NCBI GenBank assembly: GCA_021323535.1
Contig: JAJONO010000011.1
Location: forward strand, 62,001-126,000
Source: Bacteroidota bacterium
GTDB lineage: Bacteria > Bacteroidota > Bacteroidia > B-17B0 > Aurantibacillaceae
DNA: 64,000 bases
Direction: 5' to 3'
The notes below the pieces were generated by a model. The model was not told the origin of the DNA, made no database searches, and saw only the letters and a program-made list of their open reading frames with translations. The position numbers were made by a program, and so were the translations under genes. Each line of letters begins with the position of its first letter. The stretch's first letter is position 1. Below are positions 53,204-64,000 of the stretch, piece after piece.

Positions 53204-53929
53204 ATGCGCTTATCTCTCTTATATAAATCACTTCTACTTGTCTTGATGGCACCTTTAACAGGGCTCTCACAAAAATTTGTAGAACCCGGCAAACAGGATC
53301 AATTCAATATTACAGTTAATCATGACGATTACACTGTTAAAACACAGATCTTAAGCCATAACAAAGACATTAAAGTGAATAACGACCGCATTTACATGTG
53401 GTACACATCACAAAAAATCATGGAAACAAAAGGTGGATTTGAAGGAAAACTCATTCACGGAAAATACAATGCCTTTTATTTAAATAACCAATTAAAGGAA
53501 CAGGGGGCGATAAAATACGGACTTAAAAATAAAGAGTGGAAATACTGGTACTCAGATGGAAAATTAAAGGAAGTCATTACCTGGAAAAATGGCGTTAAAA
53601 ATGGTTCATATGCTCTTTATAATGATTACGGCCAGATAATGGCAAAAGGCAATTTTTGCAATGATAAACTGGATGGAAAATTTACTACTTATGGGCCGGC
53701 AGGAAACGTTACGGAGACAAAAAAATATAAAGATGGAGTTGAAGTACCTATGAAAGTCAAAAGTCAGAAGTCAAAAGCTAAAAGTTCAAGCGGAAAAACT
53801 CAGAAAGAAGTAATTGAAGGCGGAGAAAACAAGAAAAAAGAATCATTCTTCAAACGCATTTTCAGAAAAAAAGACAAAGCTGCCCGGGAGAAATCCAAAA
53901 AAACAGAAAAGAAATCTGTAACCGCGTAA
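53204..53929 (+). CDS. Secreted MORN-repeat protein with basic tail, first gene of a pilus-like operon
   Basis: 241 residues. Signal peptide 1-22 (ending GLSQ). MORN units from about 90: YYLNNQ-like KYNAFYLNNQLKEQGAIKYG, WYSDGKLKEVITWKNGVKNG, LYNDYGQIMAKGNF and TTYGPAGNVTETKKYKDG. The last 60 residues are almost pure Lys/Arg/Ser (KVKSQKSKAKSSSGKTQ, KRIFRKKDKAAREKSKKTEKK). The start of this tail is encoded by a 17-bp AAGTCAGAAGTCAAAAG word that also occurs in the GspF gene. It may bind nucleic acid or peptidoglycan-linked acids; unknown. It is 10 nt upstream of the GspK-like gene. Confidence 0.82.
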   Translation: MRLSLLYKSLLLVLMAPLTGLSQKFVEPGKQDQFNITVNHDDYTVKTQILSHNKDIKVNNDRIYMWYTSQKIMETKGGFEGKLIHGKYNAFYLNNQLKEQGAIKYGLKNKEWKYWYSDGKLKEVITWKNGVKNGSYALYNDYGQIMAKGNFCNDKLDGKFTTYGPAGNVTETKKYKDGVEVPMKVKSQKSKAKSSSGKTQKEVIEGGENKKKESFFKRIFRKKDKAAREKSKKTEKKSVTA

Positions 53930-53939
53930 TTCTCCGGCA

Positions 53940-55217
53940 ATGGGCACACGGAGGGCAATACAACATCTTCTTCAAAAAAAAGTTCAGGGCGGAGCTCTCT
54001 ACATTGCTATTATCATTAGCATTATTATCGGAATTATTCTCACCATGTTCATACTGGTAGGAAAATATAATCAGAGAAATGTTACCGTTTTTTCACAAAG
54101 TTCGCAATTAAATTACAATCTCACCAGCGCCTTTGAAATTGCAAAATCAGATTATTTCACTGCAGAAAGAAACAACCGTTGGTTTAAGAATATCAGTAAC
54201 GATGATTCGTTACGAATAAAAAAACTAAACTGGGGCGCATATCTCCTGATAACCGCAGAAACAAAAAACAGGCACCAGAAAATTTCGCAAAGTGGGTTAT
54301 TCGGCACCTGGCTCAATTCAGATACTGCTCTTTACGTTGCCGACAATTCACGTCCGGTTGGCCTGAGTGGAAAAATAGTTTTTAAAGGAAATTGTTATCT
54401 CCCAAAAGGAGGAATAAAACCGGCGTATATTGAGGGGCAATCCTACATCAGTTCTCCTGGTACCAACGCATTTATCAAAAATTCCTCAGCAGAAATTCCA
54501 ATTCTTGAAAAGAGTTTCAGGGACGCGATTACCGAACAGCAAAAAAACTTCAATCCGTATACCGACAGTGTTATTCCATTATCTATTCAAAAAATAAATC
54601 ACCCCTTCCATAAAAAAACAATTGTTCTTGATCAGGGCAGTCAGAAATTAAGCAACCTTGAGTTATCCGGAAACATAAAGATTTTAGGAAAAATCATTAC
54701 GATTGATAATTCCTGTAAGCTTGAGAACATCCTACTTGTGTGTGAGAAAGTTATTTTTAAAGAAGGTTTTAAAGGATCGGTTCATGTAATTGCTTCCGAC
54801 AGTATCATTGTGGAAAAGAAATGTGAGTTAATGTATCCAAGTTCATTTGTCATATCAGCGAAAGAAAATGAGGCTCCCATAACAAGAACCATTATTTTTA
54901 ATGAAGACAGTAAATTTTCGGGGGGAATTATTGCCTTTAAAAATTCACAGCAATTAAATACCGGGAAAGTATTTGTGAAACTTCACGCTAAAAGTGAGAT
55001 CAACGGATCGGTTTATTCAGAAGATTACGTTCACGTAGAAGGACTAATAAACGGCAATATCATCAGTCATAACCTGCTTCTTAAAACACCATCAGCGGTA
55101 TACGAAAATCATATTCTTGCCTGCGAAATTGATCCGAAAAAATACGCACATATCTTAGTGGTTCCTATTCTTAATACTAAAAAAAACAAACTGGTTTGCT
55201 GTAAGAACCTTCAATGA
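53940..55217 (+). CDS. GspK/PilX-like minor-pilin protein with bactofilin-like domain
   Basis: 425 residues. N-terminus KKVQGGALYIAIIISIIIG resembles the class III signal of GspK/PilX: a basic stretch, Gly18, cleavage before Ala19, then a hydrophobic helix without Glu at position 5. The C-terminal third has a regular beta-pattern (ENILLVCEKVIFKEGFKGSV, SEINGSVYSEDYVHVEGLINGNI) like polymer-forming bactofilin domains. A GspK-like protein begins pseudopilus tips; a bactofilin-like fusion is unusual. It ends with ATGA overlap into the next prepilin gene. This call is by signal shape and context, not overall similarity. Confidence 0.6.
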   Translation: MGTRRAIQHLLQKKVQGGALYIAIIISIIIGIILTMFILVGKYNQRNVTVFSQSSQLNYNLTSAFEIAKSDYFTAERNNRWFKNISNDDSLRIKKLNWGAYLLITAETKNRHQKISQSGLFGTWLNSDTALYVADNSRPVGLSGKIVFKGNCYLPKGGIKPAYIEGQSYISSPGTNAFIKNSSAEIPILEKSFRDAITEQQKNFNPYTDSVIPLSIQKINHPFHKKTIVLDQGSQKLSNLELSGNIKILGKIITIDNSCKLENILLVCEKVIFKEGFKGSVHVIASDSIIVEKKCELMYPSSFVISAKENEAPITRTIIFNEDSKFSGGIIAFKNSQQLNTGKVFVKLHAKSEINGSVYSEDYVHVEGLINGNIISHNLLLKTPSAVYENHILACEIDPKKYAHILVVPILNTKKNKLVCCKNLQ

Positions 55218-55570
55218 AAAAGATCACGAAGCATAAACTAAAAGGAAACACCATCATTGAAATTCTCATTGCATTGGCCATTATTAGTTTTTGCGCAAGT
55301 CTTGCAATGGTAATTTATCTGAACATTCAGAAAAGCAGCCTCCCGTTCTTTAAAATAAAAGCTGTTGAACTGGCTGAATATTACATGAAAGACACATTCA
55401 ACAAAAAAATTTTTTCGGAAGAAAATTTTAAGAACGAGGAATTTTCGGTTAAGAAAACAGTGTCTTCACATCCCGAATTCCCGGATTGTTATCTTATAAG
55501 AATTATTGTATTTGATGTAACAAAAAAGAAGGTTCACGAACTGGAAAGCGTGGTTTTGAGAGACAAATAA
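55214..55570 (+). CDS. Prepilin, GspI/PilV-like
   Basis: 118 residues. Class III signal KHKLKG|NTIIEILIALAII: cleavage after Gly11, Asn at +1 (Phe is usual), Glu16 at +5, then the hydrophobic helix. The C-terminal part is a small beta domain (FSVKKTVSSHPEFPDCYLIRIIVFDV). The size fits a minor pseudopilin of the GspI/PilV kind. Overlaps the gene before by 4 nt and is directly followed by the next prepilin. Confidence 0.8.
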   Translation: MKKITKHKLKGNTIIEILIALAIISFCASLAMVIYLNIQKSSLPFFKIKAVELAEYYMKDTFNKKIFSEENFKNEEFSVKKTVSSHPEFPDCYLIRIIVFDVTKKKVHELESVVLRDK

Positions 55571-56089
55571 TTGAGAAAAAAACAAAAATATAAACTTAAA
55601 GGATTTACTATTACGGAAGTATTGGTGACATTGGTATTGACTTCCATTGCCATAACCCTCTCTTACTCTACCTTGACTTACATTCAAAAACTATTTTATA
55701 ATTACAAGGATCAGAACCGGTTCATTAACGAGTATACAACGCTGAAAAAAAGATTTGATTTTGAATCGTTGAACGCGAAACTGATCATTGAAGAAGGTGA
55801 AAATAAATTTGTAATAAAGCGAGACAGCGGTGATGTAAGCGTGGAAATAAACGAAAAGATCATTCTGCTAAAAAAAGGAGAACATTGTGACACCTTTCAC
55901 ATTGAAGCGAAAAACATTAAGAAAGAATATGAGATCATGAAGAACCCGGTTTGGACCGGCAGGTTGATAAATCAATTAATGTTTGAAACTGAATTTACGA
56001 AACAGAAATTTAATTTTTACTTTTATAAAAACTACGATGCTTCGGTGAAGCTCGCATTAGATAAAACAGAAGACAGTGGCAGGAATTGA
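55571..56089 (+). CDS. Prepilin, GspJ/PilW-like
   Basis: 172 residues starting at TTG immediately after the preceding stop. Class III signal KYKLKG|FTITEVLVTLVLTS: cleavage after Gly11, Phe at +1, Glu16 at +5. The C-terminal domain is beta-rich (KFVIKRDSGDVSVEINEKIILL). Position in the operon and size suggest a GspJ/PilW-type minor pseudopilin. Overlaps the GspF gene by 14 nt. Confidence 0.82.
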   Translation: MRKKQKYKLKGFTITEVLVTLVLTSIAITLSYSTLTYIQKLFYNYKDQNRFINEYTTLKKRFDFESLNAKLIIEEGENKFVIKRDSGDVSVEINEKIILLKKGEHCDTFHIEAKNIKKEYEIMKNPVWTGRLINQLMFETEFTKQKFNFYFYKNYDASVKLALDKTEDSGRN

Positions 56090-57242
56090 TCTTTCGAAAT
56101 ACGGAGCAAAGTCAAAAGAAACAAGTCAGAAGTCAAAAGAAAAGACCGCTGATCCAAAAAATCTTTCTGACATTCTGAATACGGAAATCAGTTTCCTGGA
56201 GAAGAAATTTGGTCCTAAGGAAAAAGAGGGTTTCTACTCGGAGTTAGGACTTTTATTATCGACTGGCGTCGACATTAAAACCGCTTTTGAGATAATAGAA
56301 GAAGATATTCCGAACAAAAAACATAAGGTATTACTGGAACAGATAAAGAATGATATCATCAGCGGAAAACGTATTTACGAAGCGGTAGGATCGCATGAAA
56401 AGATTTTCAGTAAATATGAGATCCAGAGCATTATGATTGGAGAGGAAACAGGAAAATTACCTGAAGTTCTGAAAGAGCTTGGCTCATTTTACGAATCGAG
56501 CATTAAATTAAAAAGGCAGATCATTGGCGTGCTCACCTACCCTATTGTAGTAATAAGTATGGCCATTTTGATTGTGTATTTCATGTTATCGTTCGTAGTG
56601 CCCATCTTCAGTGACATCTTTACACAAACGGGGGGAGAATTGCCTGAGATCACGCAATTTCTTATCAGGATGAGCAATAAGAGCGGCGTTATTTTTTACA
56701 CTTTGTTTGGGATTATATTTGCATTGATTATCGTTCATAAAACCCAGAAAACAAAGGCGTGGTACAGGAGATTTACTTCGTCTTTATTTTTGAAGATTCC
56801 TGTTTTTAATAAACTGATACAAAAAATTTATCTCGCCCGTTTTTGCCAGAGCATGAAATTATTATCGGGTGCAAAAGTAATGATCAACGAGGCCTTGGAT
56901 CTTGTAAAAAACATGATAGAATATTACCCGATGGAACACGCCCTTGAGGCGGTAAAACACGAAGTGATAAACGAAGGAAAATTGCTTAATGAAAGTCTCG
57001 CCAAACACAAGATCTTTCCAAAAAAACTAGTAGCGTTAATTAAATTAAGTGAGGAAGTCAATGCCCCGGAGATTATTTTCGAGAAGTTGTATAAACAATA
57101 TTCGGCCGAAATTGAGCATCAGCAGGCTGTGGTAGGAAAACTTATAGAACCTATCTTTATTATTCTTCTCGGGTTATTTGTAGGATTTATTCTGGTGGCC
57201 ATGTATTTACCAATGTTTGAGATGAGCACGGGAACTTTTTGA
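56076..57242 (+). CDS. GspF/PilC-family inner-membrane platform protein
   Basis: 388 residues from GTG 56076. Two T2SSF domains: the first about 65-190 (GFYSELGLLLSTGVDIKTAF, SIMIGEETGKLPEVLKELGSFYE), the second about 265-385 (FCQSMKLLSGAKVMINEALDL, LIKLSEEVNAPEIIFEKLYKQY). Three membrane helices (about 175, 220, 370). The N-terminal tail is Lys/Ser-rich (SKETSQKSKEKTAD). GspF/PilC binds the assembly ATPase and builds the pilus. No ATPase (GspE/PilB) or secretin gene is in the window. Confidence 0.92.
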   Translation: MAGIDLSKYGAKSKETSQKSKEKTADPKNLSDILNTEISFLEKKFGPKEKEGFYSELGLLLSTGVDIKTAFEIIEEDIPNKKHKVLLEQIKNDIISGKRIYEAVGSHEKIFSKYEIQSIMIGEETGKLPEVLKELGSFYESSIKLKRQIIGVLTYPIVVISMAILIVYFMLSFVVPIFSDIFTQTGGELPEITQFLIRMSNKSGVIFYTLFGIIFALIIVHKTQKTKAWYRRFTSSLFLKIPVFNKLIQKIYLARFCQSMKLLSGAKVMINEALDLVKNMIEYYPMEHALEAVKHEVINEGKLLNESLAKHKIFPKKLVALIKLSEEVNAPEIIFEKLYKQYSAEIEHQQAVVGKLIEPIFIILLGLFVGFILVAMYLPMFEMSTGTF

Positions 57243-57300
57243 GGAATGTTGAGTGTTAAATGTTGAATGTTAAATTGTAGTTTAAGTATTCACAACAACA

Positions 57301-57558
57301 TTCGGAGTTGAATATGAATAGACAAGGAATTCCAAACCGTAAAACCCTGAAGATTGAATACAATTATTTAAACGTTTTACCATATAACCTTTGCGGTCTA
57401 CAACTCCGAAGGAACCCGTAAAACACTGAAAGGTTGGATACAACTATTTAAATATTTTACCGTATAGCCTTTGCAGTCTACAACTCCGAAGGAGTTGAAT
57501 GTGAATAGACAAGGAATTCCAAGCCCCCACAACCCTGAGAGGGGTTGAATAGATCAAA
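57301..57558. repeat. Nested direct and palindromic repeats between gspF and gspG
   Basis: Two copies of about 79 bp (57341-57413 and 57420-57494; about 80% alike) are flanked by CGGAGTTGAATATGAATAGA (57303) and AGGAGTTGAATGTGAATAGA (57491), each leading into CAAGGAATTCCAA. The right half, 57481-57558, is a copy of the bipartite element at 17061-17138. No gene is seen in 57243-57631. Confidence 0.75.
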
Positions 57559-57618
57559 TCCGGTTAACAAAAGCTCAAAAGTTGTTCATAACGCAAATTA
57601 AATCAGGCTCCTTTTAAT

Positions 57619-57626
57619 TATTTTTG
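57619..57626 (+). promoter_or_regulatory. -7 promoter box of the GspG-like gene
   Basis: TATTTTTG matches TAnnTTTG and ends 5 nt before the ATG at 57632, implying a separate, nearly leaderless transcript for the major prepilin. Confidence 0.6.
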
Positions 57627-57631
57627 AAGAA

Positions 57632-58066
57632 ATGAAATCCGGACTCATAAACTCGTTTAAAAAAGCCAGCAATTACAAAGTAAAGGGCATGACCCTGATC
57701 GAATTATTACTCGTGCTTGCTCTTATCGGGATTTTATTGTCAATGGCTGTGCCAAAGTTGATGCCCTTGATTGGCAAAACTAAATCACTGGAGGCACAAA
57801 TGCAGTTAAAGCACGTGCTGAATCTACAGAAGAATTATTTTTACATCAATTCAAAATATTCGAATAGTCTCGATGATATTGGTTTTGAGCAATCGAAGCT
57901 GGTAACTCAGGATGGTAAGGCCAATTACAAGATCGAGATCATTGAGGCCAATAACAAATCATTTGTTGCCAAGGCTGTTTCAGTTACCGATTTTGATCAG
58001 GACGGGCAGATGAATGTATGGCAGGTGAACCAGGAAGAAGAGATCAAAGAGCTCACCAAAGACTAA
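57632..58066 (+). CDS. GspG/PilA-like major prepilin
   Basis: 144 residues. A 19-residue basic leader, then KVKG|MTLIELLLVLALIGILL: cleavage after Gly19, Met at +1, Glu24 at +5. The helix leads to a globular domain with VPKLMPLIGKTKSLEAQMQLK and a C-terminal VTDFDQDGQMNVWQV, whose DxDxDG could bind calcium as in GspG. This is the best candidate major pseudopilin. It is followed by the peptidase gene after 12 nt. Confidence 0.88.
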   Translation: MKSGLINSFKKASNYKVKGMTLIELLLVLALIGILLSMAVPKLMPLIGKTKSLEAQMQLKHVLNLQKNYFYINSKYSNSLDDIGFEQSKLVTQDGKANYKIEIIEANNKSFVAKAVSVTDFDQDGQMNVWQVNQEEEIKELTKD

Positions 58067-58078
58067 TCCCTTATTTAT

Positions 58079-58546
58079 ATGTTTTGGCTGGGCTGGCTCC
58101 TATTAATTATATGCGGGGGTGCAATCGCTTACCAGGATTTTAAGAGTCGTTTAATTAGCTTGTGGCTTATTCTACTGTATTCAGGAACATGCATTACAAA
58201 TTATCTTTTATATGAGACGGTTTACCAGTTCGTTGAGAATGTGATTTTTAGTCTCTGTTATTTTCTATTGTGTTTTTTAGTATTGGTTTTATTTTACTTT
58301 ATTAAGAACAGGAAACCTGGCGGCATAATTGATCAGAAAATAGGATGGGCTGACGTTTTACTATTTTTAATTGTTGGATTTACAATTGAACCATTGTTTA
58401 TGATATGGTTTTTTACGGCGTCTTTTATTTTAAGTCTTGTTTTTCATTTAATTTTTTCAGGAAATAAAAAGAGCGTACCATTAGCCGGCTTTATCGTTAT
58501 CTTCTACTCCATCTTCCTGATCTTAAAACATTTCGATAGTTTTTAA
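58079..58546 (+). CDS. Minimal A24 prepilin peptidase
   Basis: 155 residues with five to six helices. Two aspartates fit the A24 aspartic protease pattern: AYQDFKSRLISLW (Asp20) and KIGWADVLLFLIVG (Asp92, the GxGD-type site with Ala instead of Gly). There is no N-terminal Cys-rich methyltransferase domain, so it probably cleaves but may not methylate the pilins. It sits directly behind the major prepilin. FlaK/TadV-type small peptidases are the nearest shape. Confidence 0.8.
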   Translation: MFWLGWLLLIICGGAIAYQDFKSRLISLWLILLYSGTCITNYLLYETVYQFVENVIFSLCYFLLCFLVLVLFYFIKNRKPGGIIDQKIGWADVLLFLIVGFTIEPLFMIWFFTASFILSLVFHLIFSGNKKSVPLAGFIVIFYSIFLILKHFDSF

Positions 58547-59026: not shown

Positions 59027-59548
59027 ATGAATTACTCTAAACTAATCTTAGCTTTATTCCTACAACTTTTCTTTTCTCCTTTCATTTCTAAATCTCAAAC
59101 GTGCTTACCCTGTACATATACCGTAACTGGGGTAAGCAACACTTCATTTACTGTGAATACGGGTCAAACACTCTGTCTTGACAGTTTAACAAAGTTTTCA
59201 GGAACCGTAACGCTGAATGGCGGAACCGTTTGCAATAAGGGTTTTTTTAATCCAAGCGCTTTAATTTTTAATAGCGGGACTATTTACAATTACCATAACA
59301 TTTTATTAAATAATGTTTTTACGTTAAATACCAACTGTTCGTTATTTAACATTAAAAGATCTTCTTTAAAGATAACCGGGACTTTCGCTATTGCCGGAGG
59401 AAACTTTGACAATAAAGGGATCAGTAGCGTATTAAACCCCCTTTCATTTAATTCAGGAACCTTTAATAACAGTGGCATCATTAACTGCAAGGGTCTTACC
59501 GGTAATACTTCCGGGATAGTGAACACTGGCATCATAAACAAAAACTAA
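59027..59548 (+). CDS. Short secreted Asn/Gly-rich beta-solenoid-like protein
   Basis: 173 residues. Signal peptide (ending ISKSQ), then TCLPCTYTVTGVSNTS and repeats of NSGTIYNYHNILL / NSGTFNNSGIINCKG type that suggest a beta-solenoid. It resembles the first part of the next gene's product (QTCLPCTY versus QNCSGCTQ; LNGGTVCNKG versus MDGGTLCNEG) but stops before any Ig or sorting domain. Likely a truncated tandem paralogue, 10 nt upstream of the larger one. Confidence 0.75.
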   Translation: MNYSKLILALFLQLFFSPFISKSQTCLPCTYTVTGVSNTSFTVNTGQTLCLDSLTKFSGTVTLNGGTVCNKGFFNPSALIFNSGTIYNYHNILLNNVFTLNTNCSLFNIKRSSLKITGTFAIAGGNFDNKGISSVLNPLSFNSGTFNNSGIINCKGLTGNTSGIVNTGIINKN

Positions 59549-59558
59549 TCAATTAATT

Positions 59559-62294
59559 ATGGGATTTTCATTAAAGAAGGTGAGATACTTTCTTGCGCTT
59601 CTATCTTTAATTCTGAATTCTCAGGTCGGCTCCTCTCAGAATTGCTCAGGATGTACGCAGAATATTTCATCTAATACCTCTTATGTTCATGTAATGACTA
59701 AAGATGTTATTTGTATTGACCCTGGGGTTGTTGTAGATGTAGTTTTTATGGACGGCGGTACTCTTTGTAATGAGGGTACAGTCTCAGATCTTAAGCTTAA
59801 TGGCGGATCCGGTATTGTAAACAACTATTCGAATATAGAAAATTATGAAGGAAGTTTTAAACTTAAGAACAATCTCGAAATCCACAATTTTCCTTATGCC
59901 ACTTTTGTTTTTTATAATAATCAGTCAATTGATCTTGACAGCCGTGACTTTTCGTTCACAAATTATAATGGCGCCAACTTCAGTTTTGACAATTACGACA
60001 TGAATGTTTACACTGGCACTATTACAATCATTAATGGCGAAACATGGAGTGTTGATCCGGGTATATCCGATCAGGCCTTATTTAACCTTGCTCACCATTT
60101 CAATTCAGATGATAACGGAGTAGTTATATTAAACAAAGAAACCGGGTACTTTAATGTTAACGGCTCTATAAATTTAAATGGAGTAGCCAATAAGAGTATT
60201 GGTAACTCTGGCCTTATGGAGGTGCTGGGTTCTTTTAATACCGGTGGTACTGCCAGCAGTAATGTAATAGAATTACAAAACTCAGGGTCTATGGCAATAT
60301 ACACAGATTTTAATTCAACCGTGAGCAATGCCAGTCTTAGTATTATTAATCAGAACAGTATTATTGTTTACAATGATTTCATACTTACTAACCCTTCCAG
60401 TACTGTTACGAACTCTTCGCAGTTTATTGTAAACAATAATGTAGATCTTAATTACTGTAATTTTACCAATAATGAGTATATAACCTGTAATAATATAAAT
60501 CTTAATAACAGTATATACCACAATAACAATAATTCCTATTTTAATTATCTCAACAATGTCAATTCAGTATTTAATAACAATTCATACATTAACGCCTCAA
60601 CAATTGTCAATACTGGCACAATAAATCTTGCCGAAAAAACTCTCATCCTCACCTATGAGTATTCCAATACCAATGGAATTATTCATGGACCGAGTGGGGT
60701 TACTGATACTTTGAGTTATGCAAGAATTATAATAACTAACAGTTCAACCAATTCAACATGGATCGACGGAAATATTTTAGTTCACGACAAATCCCTCAAC
60801 TGCAATTCGACCAACATCAATTACGGATTTGATAATGTAACCAATGCAAGTAAAATTGCCGGAACTGTTTTCTTTGCTTCAAAATCGGTTGGGCCCGGAT
60901 CTCCTCCGGTTAGTACTTGTGCTACACTCAACCAACTTTACAACGTATCTGCGACTAAATCAACATCCTCCGCTATGTGCCAAGGTGGTCTTGTTGTTTT
61001 AACTTCTCAACTGAACCAGGTCATAACTTACACAGTTCCTTTTTGGGGACTAGTAGTTACATTAAACTATCCTCTTAATATTCCTTCCAACTCGTTTACA
61101 TGGACCCCTGGAAACATGGTTGGCTATCAACATGTAGTTTCTCCGAGTTCAACAACTACTTACACAGTTAAAATAAATTATTTTGGTTGCACGTTTACAA
61201 ATGTGGTTACGGTAACTGTTACCCCTAATGCGGTAAGCATAACCGCCAATCAAACCGGTATTTTATGTTATCCATCTTCAGGTCTTATACTTAATGGCAC
61301 TGCCAGTGCACCCGGAGCATATACGCTCCAATGGTATCTTAATGGTAGTCCCATTTCCGGAGCAACCAGCCTTAATTATACCCCAACAGGACCAGGAATA
61401 TATTATCTTAAGATGACCGCGACAGGAAGTTGTCCTGCGGCCTCTTCAAACACAATAACCATTCATCCAAAACCTTCTGTAACAATTGTTGCCAGCGCGC
61501 TTGGTATTTGCCAGGGAGTGCCTGTTACATTTACTGCAACTGTAGCGTCTGGTTCCGGGAGCGGGTTCAGTTACCAGTGGACACAGAATACGACTAATGT
61601 TGGAACAAATTCCAATATGTATACAACATCTTCTGCAGGAAACTACGCGGTGAATGTTACCAACTCTAATGGATGTGTAGGCACATCCAATGCAATCAAT
61701 ATCCAGGTTAGTACCGGCCTGACTGCAAATGCCGGACCCGATCAGATCTATCTTTCAACGCCAATTGTTATCGGAGGTGTTAATGCGGGCTCCTCAGCAT
61801 GTGCAACTGGCGGTGTTCCACCATATACACCGTTATGGTCCACAAACTCAGGTTTTATTTCCGGAAATGTAAACCAGTGTAACAACCTGGTGGTTCCTAC
61901 TGTTTCTACAATCTATAGTTTAACTGTTACTGATGCAGCGGGTTGTCAATCTACCGATAATGTTTTTGTGGCAAAAGGCGGAACATTTTATATCGTTCCT
62001 AAAAAAGATATTGATGGTGGCTACCAGGTACCTGTAGCTAATAAAGTTTATTTCAAATTTGAGGAAGAATATAAAAACGGGAATCTTTCGTATAAAATAC
62101 TTGACTACAATAGTCTTACAGCAAACATTCAACCTGCAAATATTGTTTGCAGTTTAGTTCCTTCAGCAAAGAGCCTTGGTGATAACAGGTATTACATTGA
62201 TATTACCACTTGTTCGCTTCAGACTTCAAAATTTTACCTTGTAGAAGTAACTACCGACAAGAACGAAAAATTCTACTTTAAATTTTTGAATTGA
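59559..62294 (+). CDS. Large secreted Asn-rich and Ig-like protein lacking a T9SS sorting domain
   Basis: 911 residues. Signal peptide ends QVGSSQ; QNCSGCTQN begins the mature part. About 50-400 is Asn/Tyr-rich with many short beta units (NNSYFNYLNNVNSVFNNNS). About 460-810 holds several Ig/PKD-like modules (SITANQTGILCYPSSGLIL, SVTIVASALGICQGVPVTFT, NAGPDQIYLSTPIVIGG). The C-terminal 95 residues (from GGTFYIVPKKDIDGGYQVP to EKFYFKFLN) do not look like a type A (YPNP) or type B T9SS domain. Probably a surface or pilus-associated adhesin. First of four tightly spaced genes leading to the RHS gene. Confidence 0.83.
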   Translation: MGFSLKKVRYFLALLSLILNSQVGSSQNCSGCTQNISSNTSYVHVMTKDVICIDPGVVVDVVFMDGGTLCNEGTVSDLKLNGGSGIVNNYSNIENYEGSFKLKNNLEIHNFPYATFVFYNNQSIDLDSRDFSFTNYNGANFSFDNYDMNVYTGTITIINGETWSVDPGISDQALFNLAHHFNSDDNGVVILNKETGYFNVNGSINLNGVANKSIGNSGLMEVLGSFNTGGTASSNVIELQNSGSMAIYTDFNSTVSNASLSIINQNSIIVYNDFILTNPSSTVTNSSQFIVNNNVDLNYCNFTNNEYITCNNINLNNSIYHNNNNSYFNYLNNVNSVFNNNSYINASTIVNTGTINLAEKTLILTYEYSNTNGIIHGPSGVTDTLSYARIIITNSSTNSTWIDGNILVHDKSLNCNSTNINYGFDNVTNASKIAGTVFFASKSVGPGSPPVSTCATLNQLYNVSATKSTSSAMCQGGLVVLTSQLNQVITYTVPFWGLVVTLNYPLNIPSNSFTWTPGNMVGYQHVVSPSSTTTYTVKINYFGCTFTNVVTVTVTPNAVSITANQTGILCYPSSGLILNGTASAPGAYTLQWYLNGSPISGATSLNYTPTGPGIYYLKMTATGSCPAASSNTITIHPKPSVTIVASALGICQGVPVTFTATVASGSGSGFSYQWTQNTTNVGTNSNMYTTSSAGNYAVNVTNSNGCVGTSNAINIQVSTGLTANAGPDQIYLSTPIVIGGVNAGSSACATGGVPPYTPLWSTNSGFISGNVNQCNNLVVPTVSTIYSLTVTDAAGCQSTDNVFVAKGGTFYIVPKKDIDGGYQVPVANKVYFKFEEEYKNGNLSYKILDYNSLTANIQPANIVCSLVPSAKSLGDNRYYIDITTCSLQTSKFYLVEVTTDKNEKFYFKFLN

Positions 62295-62301
62295 TTTCCC
62301 C

Positions 62302-62796
62302 ATGAAAAAACTATTAATTCTACTGCCCGCATTGCTGTTATTCTCGTGTGGTAACACCCAGAAAACAGGTTATATCGATGTTAAAAAAGTATTCAATGAT
62401 TTTGAATATAAAAAAGAGCTTGAAAAAGAACTCACGAGTATTACCAATAACAGAAAGTTTGTATTGGATAGTATGGAAACAAACCTCAGATTACTTTCTA
62501 AAAAAGTGGAACTGGATAAAAACAACAAGGATCTTGTCGCTGAGTTTCAGACTCTGAGAAGTATTTACCTGGAAAAAAGATCGATGATCGAGGACGAAAA
62601 CAGGAACATCGTTCAACAGTTCGATGAAAAAATAATTAAGCAGCTTAACAGCTATGTTAAAAGTTACGGGCAGCAAAATAATTATTCAATGATTTACGGT
62701 GCCACCTCTGACGGTAACATTATGTATGGCGATACTACTCTTGATATTTCCAGAGAAGTCACTGAGTATATCAATAAAAAATACAAAGGGAAATAA
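62302..62796 (+). CDS. OmpH/Skp-like chaperone lipoprotein
   Basis: 164 residues. MKKLLILLPALLLFSCGNTQ gives a lipobox with Cys16. After YIDVKKVFNDFEYKKELEKEL comes a long coiled coil (about 40-125, RLLSKKVELDKNNKDLVAEF to EDENRNIVQQFDEKI) and a C-terminal QNNYSMIYGATSDGNIMYGD typical of OmpH/Skp. Skp-like proteins hold unfolded outer-membrane proteins; the lipid anchor and position suggest a dedicated chaperone for the RHS or surface protein. Starts 7 nt after the preceding stop. Confidence 0.85.
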   Translation: MKKLLILLPALLLFSCGNTQKTGYIDVKKVFNDFEYKKELEKELTSITNNRKFVLDSMETNLRLLSKKVELDKNNKDLVAEFQTLRSIYLEKRSMIEDENRNIVQQFDEKIIKQLNSYVKSYGQQNNYSMIYGATSDGNIMYGDTTLDISREVTEYINKKYKGK

Positions 62797-62799
62797 TAC

Positions 62800-63507
62800 A
62801 TGAGAATCTTAATTATCATACTTGTTGTTTGTGCGTTGGGCCTGACTTTCTGTGGACAAAAGAAAGATTTGAGCGGCCCCTCAGGAGAAGGCATCAATGC
62901 ATCTGAGGTAACTCTCAAAAAAGAACTCGCAGATAAGAACACTACGTATGACAACATCTTTGAACACCTGGGTACAATTTCCAAAGAAATAAACAAACAA
63001 AAAGAAATTGAGGATTTTGTATTTACCGCACAGTATCAACCACATTTATTACTATCGCTTTTAAATTCAGATTCTACCGACGAAAATCAAAAGATCAATA
63101 GAGCTATTCTGACTAGAGCACAGGAATATGATAAACTTCATTATATAAAATTCTCTATTGAAAATAAAAAATTTAAGTCAGAATTGTTAAGATACAATGC
63201 TACAACACCTGAGGAATATTCAGAAAGAATATCTTATTATTCGTTTCACATAAAAAATGATGTTTACCTGGTCGAGAATTCAAAAGACACTCTGAAAAAC
63301 GCATTCGTAACCTTTGAAAGAACATTTGACATGTCGCCAAAACTCAATATCGTTTTTGCGTTTGAAAGAAAAAAAACAGAGCCTCTCAAACAACTCACGT
63401 TCGTGTTTGAAGATCTGGTATTCAATAATGGAAAAATTTTATTTGAATACGACTACACCAAATTTTCATATCTGAACTCTCCTGAAATAAAAAAAATAAT
63501 ACCATGA
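62800..63507 (+). CDS. Lipoprotein of unknown function in the RHS operon
   Basis: 235 residues. MRILIIILVVCALGLTFCGQ gives lipobox Cys18. The rest has NTTYDNIFEHLGTISKEINKQ, FEDLVFNNGKILFEYDYTKF and mixed helix and strand. No family recognised. It starts 3 nt after the Skp-like gene and overlaps the RHS gene by ATGA, so the three are coupled. Confidence 0.75.
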   Translation: MRILIIILVVCALGLTFCGQKKDLSGPSGEGINASEVTLKKELADKNTTYDNIFEHLGTISKEINKQKEIEDFVFTAQYQPHLLLSLLNSDSTDENQKINRAILTRAQEYDKLHYIKFSIENKKFKSELLRYNATTPEEYSERISYYSFHIKNDVYLVENSKDTLKNAFVTFERTFDMSPKLNIVFAFERKKTEPLKQLTFVFEDLVFNNGKILFEYDYTKFSYLNSPEIKKIIP

Positions 63508-64000
63508 GATCTTTTGTAAAGAAATATCAAAGACACATTGCCACTTTTTTTCTTCTCAATATTTTAGTTGAGCTGATAAGCCCAGCAGCGGCAATGGCAT
63601 TAACAAGCGGACCAAATCAACCAGAGGTTCAGGAGTTTCAGGCCATTAACGTGAGCGATATGGTTGATCCTTCAACAGGAGATTGTTCTTACAATGTGCC
63701 ATTACTGGAAGTTGACGGATACCCGGTAAATTTAAGTTACCGTTCAGGAATAAGCATGGACCAAGAAGCTACTTTCTGTGGATTAGGCTGGAACATGAAT
63801 GTTGGATCCATTTCAAGAGGATTAAGAGGGTTACCTGATGATTTTAAAGGAGATGTGATCACAAAGAAAATGAACATGAAAGACAACGAATCGTATGGTG
63901 TGACGATTGGCGTTGGCGGAGAATTTTTTGGTGTAGACGGCCTCACAGCAAATGGATCGATAGGACTTACCTATAATAATTATTCAGGATATGATTATGT
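63504..64000 (+). CDS. RHS/YD-repeat-type secreted protein (N-terminal part)
   Basis: About 165 residues to the window edge. A signal peptide ends near AAAMALTSG; then PNQPEVQEFQAINVSDMV, DPSTGDCSYNVPLLEVDGYP, NLSYRSGISMDQEATFCGLG and WNMNVGSISRGLRGLPDDF. These are the N-terminal signatures of the large Bacteroidota RHS-repeat proteins, which form a hollow shell, often around a C-terminal toxin. ATG overlaps the preceding stop. The repeat core and any toxin lie beyond the window. Confidence 0.85.
   Translation, partial: MRSFVKKYQRHIATFFLLNILVELISPAAAMALTSGPNQPEVQEFQAINVSDMVDPSTGDCSYNVPLLEVDGYPVNLSYRSGISMDQEATFCGLGWNMNVGSISRGLRGLPDDFKGDVITKKMNMKDNESYGVTIGVGGEFFGVDGLTANGSIGLTYNNYSGYDY

What the first reader, a model, noticed from the sequence alone, without database searches (positions are those of the whole stretch)
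53204..58546. Compact type II secretion / type IV pilus-like cluster in a Bacteroidota genome
Seen: three class III prepilins with Gly|(N/F/M) and Glu at +5 (55214, 55571, 57632), a GspK/PilX-like protein with a bactofilin-like domain (53940), GspF/PilC (56076) and a small A24 peptidase with two Asp (58079), in overlapping order behind a MORN protein. Known: these parts build a pseudopilus or pilus and need a GspE/PilB ATPase and, for export, a secretin, neither of which is here. Members of this phylum mainly use T9SS and Mfa/FimA-type pili. Inferred: a reduced, possibly new system that may serve the surface/RHS genes just downstream.
Basis: partly seen in the sequence, partly recalled or inferred. 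Interest (0 to 1): 0.8.

Follow-up and report, generated by a model that had tools for sequence, protein, structure and literature searches.

The report
Split Bacteroidota type II secretion-like machine
These genes are one half of a protein-export-type machine that many Bacteroidota share; its predicted needle tip resembles a Thermus DNA-uptake pilin, and giant RHS-type surface proteins sit beside it unusually often, which suggests a testable answer to what this poorly understood machine carries.

Summary
In detail: seven open genes encode a MORN protein, a GspK-like pilin, two minor pseudopilins, GspF, a GspG-like pilin and a small A24 peptidase. It is not a reduced system. In a relative, 13 genes form one run (E-D-L-M-X-C-Y-K-I-J-F-G-O). 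Here, as in a one-contig relative, they are split: the other half lies on contig C126, which begins inside the secretin gene; the ATPase is missing from the assembly. By gene content and order this is the putative "T2SS" of Cytophaga, which Denise 2019 suggested may be a separate system derived from type IVa pili.

New here: tip pilin K is predicted as a pilin-like part plus beta-solenoid, best (though weakly) matched by ComZ, the Thermus competence pilin. L is predicted to be a fused GspL. RHS genes co-occur with the machine (17 of 17 positive, 18 of 43 negative genomes) and lie within 20 kb in 10 of 17 (1.6 expected; cut-off chosen afterwards). My leading reading is an endopilus exporter of Sec-delivered RHS and surface proteins. 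Identity is nearly certain; cargo is inferred (about 0.4). DNA uptake is the main rival.

The parts
53204..53929 (+). Y: MORN_2-repeat protein with signal peptide (by eye), first gene of the K-O half
   Evidence: PF07661 E=7.1e-7, 29.2 bits, cut-off 29.6; next before K among profiled genes in 61 of 68 named loci with room
53940..55217 (+). K: GspK/ComZ-like tip pilin, N-terminal helix + strands + beta-solenoid
   Evidence: AlphaFold2 pLDDT 88.3, pTM 0.82; best Foldseek match ComZ 6qvi, E=9.9e-4 but TM 0.25; conserved family
55214..55570 (+). I: minor pseudopilin (GspI position)
   Evidence: N_methyl 8e-5, over cut-off; G|N with Glu5 read directly
55571..56089 (+). J: minor pseudopilin (GspJ/H position), TTG start
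   Evidence: N_methyl 9.2e-5, over cut-off; G|F with Glu5
56076..57242 (+). F: GspF/PilC inner-membrane platform protein
   Evidence: T2SSF 1.7e-43; NCBIfam PilC and GspF about 1e-63, below their equivalog cut-offs
57632..58066 (+). G: major pseudopilin
   Evidence: N_methyl 5e-7; GspG 9.7e-8, PilA 7.4e-14
58079..58546 (+). O: prepilin peptidase, A24 domain only, GxAD variant
   Evidence: PF01478 2.4e-5, 25.2 bits, cut-off 26.5; sequences compared
59027..59548 (+). 173-aa protein with signal peptide (by eye) directly downstream; candidate cargo or surface protein
   Evidence: no family at 0.01; a similar protein (by eye) follows O in relative G026
59559..62294 (+). 911-aa protein with PKD/Ig-like repeats; candidate cargo
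   Evidence: PKD_3 5e-5 and PKD 8e-5, both below cut-off
62302..62796 (+). OmpH-like protein with a lipobox (by eye), next to the RHS-type gene
   Evidence: PF03938 2.1e-15; same cluster in 15 named loci besides the window
62800..63507 (+). putative lipoprotein next to the RHS-type gene
   Evidence: same cluster in 14 named loci besides the window; no Pfam family
63504..63998 (+). start of an 1826-aa RHS/YD-type secreted protein that runs beyond the window
   Evidence: clusters with proteins of which several match RHS repeats, mostly weakly; no Pfam or NCBIfam match of its own

Best explanation
The window holds the pilin half of a conserved Bacteroidota type II secretion-like machine. The other half (GspE ATPase, GspD secretin, fused GspL, PilO/GspM-like M, an Ig/Fn3-like lipoprotein X and GspC/PilP-like C) is encoded elsewhere in the genome, on a contig that breaks inside gspD; GspE itself is inferred from relatives. 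Proposed working: O cleaves the pilins; GspE, F, L and M assemble a short endopilus of G, started and capped by K-I-J; no retraction ATPase was found. K places a rigid ComZ-like beta-solenoid at the tip. Cargo proteins enter the periplasm by Sec, contact the tip, and are pushed through the secretin, with X possibly assisting at the outer membrane. Shown: gene content, order, conservation, split loci, linkage to RHS genes. Predicted: folds of K and L. Inferred: tip location, the push mechanism, and that linked RHS/YD and surface proteins are cargo. Identity of the machine about 0.95; ComZ-like tip about 0.7 (lowered from 0.8 on rechecking the match scores); RHS export about 0.4.
For: One 13-gene run in relative G026. 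Two loci, E and F 38 kb apart, in one-contig genome G001. The C126 half in this genome. All 13 genes found in 32 of 80 named loci. In the 15 of 60 relatives with a T2SSE over the cut-off there is one such match each, except G030, which shows two equal-scoring copies near the ends of its contig. L model matches GspL 4pht, E=4.7e-9, and its periplasmic part XcpY 6ghu, E=0.028, TM 0.70 by target. M profile matches PilO 3jc8, E=2.9e-4. K matches ComZ. X has an invariant lipobox Cys in 18 of 18 aligned. RHS core 17/17 against 18/43 and DUF6443 15/17 against 7/43. An RHS core or DUF6443 match within 20 kb on the same contig in 10 of 17, 1.6 expected. RHS-type gene in the flank of 34 of 80 named loci, 32 of the 58 with at least 6 kb of flank. 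In the genus of Flavobacterium pectinovorum, RHS core 10/10 against 38/71, p=0.0035.
Against: GspE is absent from this assembly and from the draft of relative G025, which also lacks GspD. Many genomes hold RHS genes without the machine: 18 of 43 relatives and 38 of 71 in the Flavobacterium set, with G057 (22 matches) and G050 (15) the clearest. In 7 of 17 positive relatives no listed RHS match lies within 20 kb; the same for 6 of 10 in Flavobacterium. The 20-kb limit was chosen after seeing the data, the match lists were cut, and nothing is corrected for shared ancestry. Only 12 of 80 named loci show an RHS-core motif in the flank by regex; most of the 34 rest on clustering. The Foldseek match of K to ComZ has TM 0.25 and rmsd 17.5 A overall; ice-binding solenoids tie with ComZ by VIA (Z 11-12 against 11.1), and the pilin part was barely tested. 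In C. hutchinsonii, mutants hardly changed the extracellular proteins (PMC5553014, section 24).
Confidence: 0.6

Rival explanations
1. A DNA-uptake (competence) endopilus: K is a ComZ-type tip DNA receptor, the secretin admits DNA, and RHS linkage reflects shared residence in variable, horizontally exchanged regions.
For: The only Foldseek match of K at E<=0.001 is ComZ; [quoted passage not shown] ComZ binds DNA, and PilT mutations do not impair T. thermophilus competence (PMC6561018 passages). An integrase-type family lies in 12 of 80 flanks (one member scanned), as variable regions may show.
Against: ComZ is not listed when the K profiles are searched against PDB sequences; its DNA-binding lysines were not compared. 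A fused GspL is a T2SS trait. No competence gene was recognised among the recurrent flank families printed, but only some of these were scanned, and competence genes were not surveyed genome-wide.
Confidence: 0.2
2. General surface-protein exporter or outer-membrane organiser, with no special relation to RHS proteins.
For: C. hutchinsonii mutants lose cellulose adhesion and some outer-membrane proteins (PMC5553014, abstract and section 24). Other secreted-looking proteins neighbour the genes, e.g. a family of about 220-400 aa within or beside the machine in 9 loci.
Against: It does not by itself predict the RHS co-occurrence and proximity.
Confidence: 0.25
3. Degraded remnant.
For: No GspE in the assembly and only 66 codons of secretin; GxAD peptidase motif.
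Against: C126 begins inside gspD, as an assembly break would; all seven window frames are open and conserved; one-contig relative G001 has E, D, L, M, X, C and the Y-to-O half by order and length.
Confidence: 0.04

Closest known systems
Putative T2SS of Cytophaga hutchinsonii, CHU_3191-3202 (Wang 2017, PMC5553014)
   Same: ATPase, secretin, peptidase, major pilin, GspF, minor pilins and L/M/C-like genes in one cluster; the reported numbering (3201, 3200 minor pilins, 3199 F, 3198 G, 3197 O, 3196 E, 3195 D, then 3194, 3193, 3191) follows the commonest order found here, I-J-F-G-O-E-D-L-M-X-C. Components were also reported in Flavobacterium, Pedobacter and Odoribacter
   Different: Sequences were not compared here. 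No T2S-K, MORN or lipoprotein was named there; by position CHU_3202 would be K and CHU_3192 X (my inference). Here K, Y and X are shown as conserved parts and the set is split in two loci
Proteobacterial T2SS (Gsp)
   Same: E, D, F, G, O, fused GspL, K-I-J tip set, no PilT
   Different: K is predicted with a beta-solenoid, where GspK has a helical domain (PMC6561018 passages); M matches PilO; C has no recognised domain; MORN protein and lipoprotein are added; E and D match PilB and PilQ nearly as well as GspE and GspD; published trees place the Bacteroidetes system apart
ComZ, Thermus thermophilus competence tip pilin (6qvi, PMC6561018)
   Same: pilin-like part with a beta-solenoid, same order of elements, next to a GspI-like pilin
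   Different: no sequence match; weak overall superposition (TM 0.25); shorter solenoid; DNA binding unknown
Polymorphic RHS toxin systems (Zhang 2012, PMC3482391)
   Same: signal-peptide RHS proteins, labelled 'T2SS/Sec-dependent' there
   Different: in its table that label lists no signature neighbourhood genes (passages); here RHS genes sit beside the actual machine

Membership tests
Type II secretion system | GspE assembly ATPase | tested here: inconclusive
   absent from this assembly; over cut-off in 15 of 60 relatives, next to the secretin where read
Type II secretion system | secretin GspD | tested here: met
   only the C-terminal 66 codons, at the end of C126, in this genome; full length in relatives, Secretin 4e-38 in G026
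Type II secretion system | GspF platform and GspG-type major pilin | tested here: met
   PilC and PilA models score as well as or better than GspF and GspG
Type II secretion system | fused GspL (actin-like + TM + periplasmic ferredoxin-like) | tested here: met
   predicted model of this genome's L, Foldseek matches to GspL and XcpY; a prediction, not a structure
Type II secretion system | GspM and GspC | tested here: inconclusive
   M matches PilO 2.9e-4; C matches no family or relevant PDB chain
Type II secretion system | GspK with helical domain | tested here: not met
   K model carries a beta-solenoid
Type II secretion system | A24 prepilin peptidase | tested here: inconclusive
   PF01478 E=2.4e-5, 25.2 bits, below cut-off 26.5; GxAD for GxGD
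Type II secretion system | groups with T2SS in trees of core proteins | not tested
   literature says the Bacteroidetes system groups with T4aP instead (PMC6668835 passages)
Type II secretion system | exports folded proteins | not testable with these tools
   needs mutants
Type IVa pilus | retraction ATPase PilT | tested here: not met
   no second, different T2SSE over cut-off in the 15 relatives that have one; G030 has two equal-scoring copies
Type IVa pilus | separate PilM and PilN | tested here: not met
   one protein predicted to hold both parts; 20 homologues aligned with it but not modelled
ComZ-type tip pilin | beta-solenoid between penultimate and last strand of the pilin sheet | tested here: inconclusive
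   order of elements fits; pairing of the last strand not checked; overall TM 0.25
ComZ-type tip pilin | binds DNA | not testable with these tools
   needs protein
Bactofilin | PF04519 over curated cut-off | tested here: not met
   15.3 bits against 27.9; 19.8 at best in three relatives scanned

The most novel reading that the evidence does not exclude
The Bacteroidota T2SS-like machine is a secretion system in its own right, with a ComZ-type solenoid tip, an added lipoprotein and an added MORN protein, devoted largely to exporting Sec-delivered giant RHS/YD-repeat (polymorphic toxin-like) proteins and their cassette partners.
Probability: 0.35. Interest if true: 0.85.

Novelty: new variant of a known kind. 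Interest (0 to 1): 0.6.

Why it matters
Whether the Bacteroidetes 'T2SS' is a T2SS, and what it secretes, was left open by Denise 2019 and Wang 2017 (passages and sections read). A defined 13-gene set, a predicted tip protein and a named class of candidate cargo make both questions testable in laboratory Flavobacterium or Cytophaga. If RHS proteins are the cargo, it links a pilus-type machine to polymorphic toxins in a phylum known mainly for the type IX system.

Tried and rejected
Bactofilin cytoskeleton reading of 53940: below cut-off; the weak match covers a short C-terminal stretch. Degraded remnant: frames open and conserved. Chance prepilin motifs: excluded by conservation of the gene set. 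PDB sequence searches with the L, C and K profiles gave no relevant match. dN/dS ratios could not be computed in general: NG86 dS was saturated in 12 of 13 comparisons (O against G025: 1.7) and YN00 gave one ratio (G against G025, 0.037). Promoter and terminator patterns are at shuffle level; no Rfam family at gathering score and no tRNA in the window. C. hutchinsonii sequences were not fetched or compared. An RHS-core regex found 23 hits in 12 of 80 loci, fewer than the 34 by clustering; it misses proteins cut by locus ends and those without a core. Of seven RHS-type proteins scanned, only one RHS_repeat match was over Pfam's cut-off, besides L103. Dropped before counts: K of G041 (interrupted frame in L064), so A1 has 16 of the 17 GspF-positive genomes; the room test used 68 of 80 loci; the L, M, X, C and K alignments used hand-picked subsets of 25 loci, with cut or odd rows left out; one of 20 locus handles was not held. 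The scan kept the best 80 of 125 relatives. The RHS linkage test used listed matches (one search list was cut), counted RHS core and DUF6443 together, and its 20-kb limit was set after looking. Match lists were cut, so 'not within 20 kb' means 'not listed'. VIA rows show ice-binding solenoids tied with ComZ for K; folds not listed are not excluded. In print: of ten paper searches none listed a paper whose title or shown start of abstract joins the Bacteroidota T2SS to RHS genes or to a solenoid tip pilin; six papers were opened, all in part.
Full report
Observation. The seven ORFs at 53204-58546 are present and open. Pfam finds MORN_2 (just below cut-off), N_methyl in three proteins, T2SSF (1.7e-43) and an A24 peptidase just below cut-off; 53940 has only a weak bactofilin match. 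NCBIfam's nearest models are PilC and GspF for 56076 and PilA and GspG for 57632, below their curated cut-offs. F and G are separated by 389 bases that hold a degenerate direct repeat. Against relatives G025 and G010, dN is 0.10-0.70 over 13 comparisons, with NG86 dS saturated in 12.

Where the rest is. In this genome no T2SSE match was found. A secretin C-terminus of 66 codons starts at base 1 of contig C126, followed by four more genes, here called L, M, X and C. In relative G026 all 13 genes form one run: E, D, L, M, X, C, Y, K, I, J, F, G, O. In G001, a one-contig genome, E and F lie 38 kb apart, in an E-to-C half and a Y-to-O half, so the split seen here is natural. That C126 breaks inside gspD for assembly reasons and that gspE is lost with it is an inference; the nearest relative by GspF, G025 (87%), also lacks E and D in its draft assembly.

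Distribution. GspF relatives were found in 17 of 60 genomes including this one; 15 of the 60 have a T2SSE over cut-off; the two GspF-positive genomes without it are G000 and G025. A scan of one genome for each of 84,980 species found 125 relatives of GspF and kept the best 80 loci, from Flavobacterium, Pedobacter, Mucilaginibacter, Saprospiraceae and others (one bears a Bifidobacterium label and is probably mislabelled). With profiles for the 13 genes, 32 of 80 loci hold all 13. Of the 68 with more than 3.5 kb before F, K is present in 67, and Y-K-I-J-F are consecutive among the profiled genes in 61, though other genes can lie between. In 198 genomes drawn over the phylum, K matches in 19: this one, one weak partial match (G050), seven others of the class and ten outside it.

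Parts. K (16-sequence alignment) is predicted with pLDDT 88.3: helix 3-69, strands 90-133, a strand-rich solenoid of about 140-400, and a last strand at 419-424. The only Foldseek match at E<=0.001 is ComZ, with TM 0.25 and rmsd 17.5 A overall. VIA gives ComZ Z=11.1 over 213 residues at 3.9 A, tied with ice-binding solenoids (Z 11-12), and the part before residue 118 was barely tested. [quoted passage not shown] The order of elements in K agrees, but I could not check which strand the last one pairs with. L (21 sequences) is predicted with an actin-like half, a long helix and a ferredoxin-like end; the best PDB match is GspL, E=4.7e-9, and XcpY matches the periplasmic part, E=0.028. M matches PilO at 2.9e-4. 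C matches nothing relevant. X has an invariant Cys at a lipobox in 18 of 18 aligned and repeats that look Ig/Fn3-like by eye, with only a weak Big_13 match. E and D of G026 match GspE/PilB and GspD/PilQ almost equally. No second, different ATPase such as PilT is over cut-off in the 15 relatives; G030 has two equal-scoring copies near the ends of its contig.

Known work. Wang 2017 (PMC5553014; abstract, sections 19 and 24, passages) described the putative T2SS of C. hutchinsonii and components in four other Bacteroidetes; mutants were impaired in cellulose use and adhesion, and extracellular proteins hardly changed. Its reported gene numbering follows the commonest order found here, I-J-F-G-O-E-D-L-M-X-C (20 of 80 loci begin or continue exactly so), with CHU_3202 in the place of K and CHU_3192 in that of X; I did not compare the sequences. 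Denise 2019 (PMC6668835; passages) found that the Bacteroidetes system clusters with T4aP and raised the possibility of a novel secretion system derived from T4aP. Abby 2016 (PMC4793230; passages), a 2023 review (PMC10128026; passages) and Zhang 2012 (PMC3482391; passages) were read for context. The predicted GspL fusion adds a T2SS-like trait to a machine that published trees place near T4aP; convergent fusion is possible.

RHS linkage. Downstream of the window cluster lie an OmpH-like protein, a putative lipoprotein, an 1826-aa YD/RHS-type protein without a family match of its own, and further large secreted proteins, one with DUF6443. In the 60 relatives the RHS core (TIGR03696) occurs in 17 of 17 GspF-positive and 18 of 43 negative genomes, Fisher p=1.2e-5; within the genus 11/11 against 10/26; among genomes of 3.8 Mb or more 14/14 against 5/13; DUF6443 in 15/17 against 7/43, p=3e-7. 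An RHS core or DUF6443 match on the same contig within 20 kb of a machine gene: 10 of 17, against 1.6 expected from random placement, with none of a million simulations reaching 10 (the limit was chosen after looking). In G001 the only two RHS cores of the genome lie between the two halves of the machine. In the named loci, 34 of 80 have an RHS/YD-type gene in the flank, 32 of the 58 with at least 6 kb of free flank. Of seven such proteins scanned, five match RHS_repeat at E<0.01 (one over Pfam's cut-off), one DUF6531 and one nothing; a core motif by regex is in 12 loci. Of 20 named loci's genomes, 19 were held and 19 of 19 have an RHS core. In the genus of Flavobacterium pectinovorum (81 genomes), 10/10 GspF-positive and 38/71 negative genomes have it, p=0.0035, and in four of the ten a listed core lies within 20 kb (G065, G304, G331, G350). 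Against: many RHS-bearing genomes lack the machine (G057 with 22 matches, G050 with 15), and none of these tests is corrected for shared ancestry.

Mechanism. From established T2SS biology and the anatomy above I infer: pilins processed by O, an endopilus of G started by K-I-J, tip contact with Sec-delivered cargo, and extrusion through the secretin without retraction. RHS/YD and cassette proteins are the best-supported candidate cargo (about 0.4); DNA uptake by a ComZ-like tip is the chief rival (about 0.2).

Verdict. Real, conserved, and complete in relatives; a new variant of a known kind. The interest lies in the ComZ-like tip and the RHS linkage, which turn an open question about Bacteroidota into a deletion-and-proteomics experiment.

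Noticed in passing
window 57243-57631: 389-base gap between F and G with a degenerate direct repeat (64-nt unit, 88%; 35-nt unit, 94%).
   Followed up: partly
L071, L074, L076, L098, L102, L104-L106, L109, L123, L127, L128; also L024:3119-4192: A family recurs beside the machine in 12 of 80 loci; the one member scanned (L098) is a tyrosine integrase; a similar protein by eye lies between RHS and gspE in G036. Possible cassette recombination.
   Followed up: partly
L094, L103, L121, L122, L134, L137-L139, L142: A secreted-looking family of about 220-400 aa (one member without Pfam match) lies within or beside the secretion genes in 9 loci, mainly Sphingobacteriaceae by record title; candidate cargo.
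   Followed up: no
L056:4983-5639, L057:5733-6395, L055:513-1166, L058:192-851: An opposite-strand gene of about 220 aa follows O in several relatives; a copy read in L035 and a family look like LuxR-type response regulators by eye, the rest judged by place and length.
   Followed up: no
L024:13955-14416, window 58079-58546: Prepilin peptidase GxGD motif reads GxAD in this genome and in G036 but GxGD in three others read; all five are short.
   Followed up: partly
G091, G096, G122, G140, G152, G191, G214, G218, G238, G250: K-like proteins in open frames of 440-540 aa occur in ten genomes of other classes of the phylum, best matched over the C-terminal solenoid.
   Followed up: no
L081: A contig labelled Bifidobacterium breve (MAG) carries I-J-F of this Bacteroidota system: probably a mislabelled or contaminated record.
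   Followed up: no
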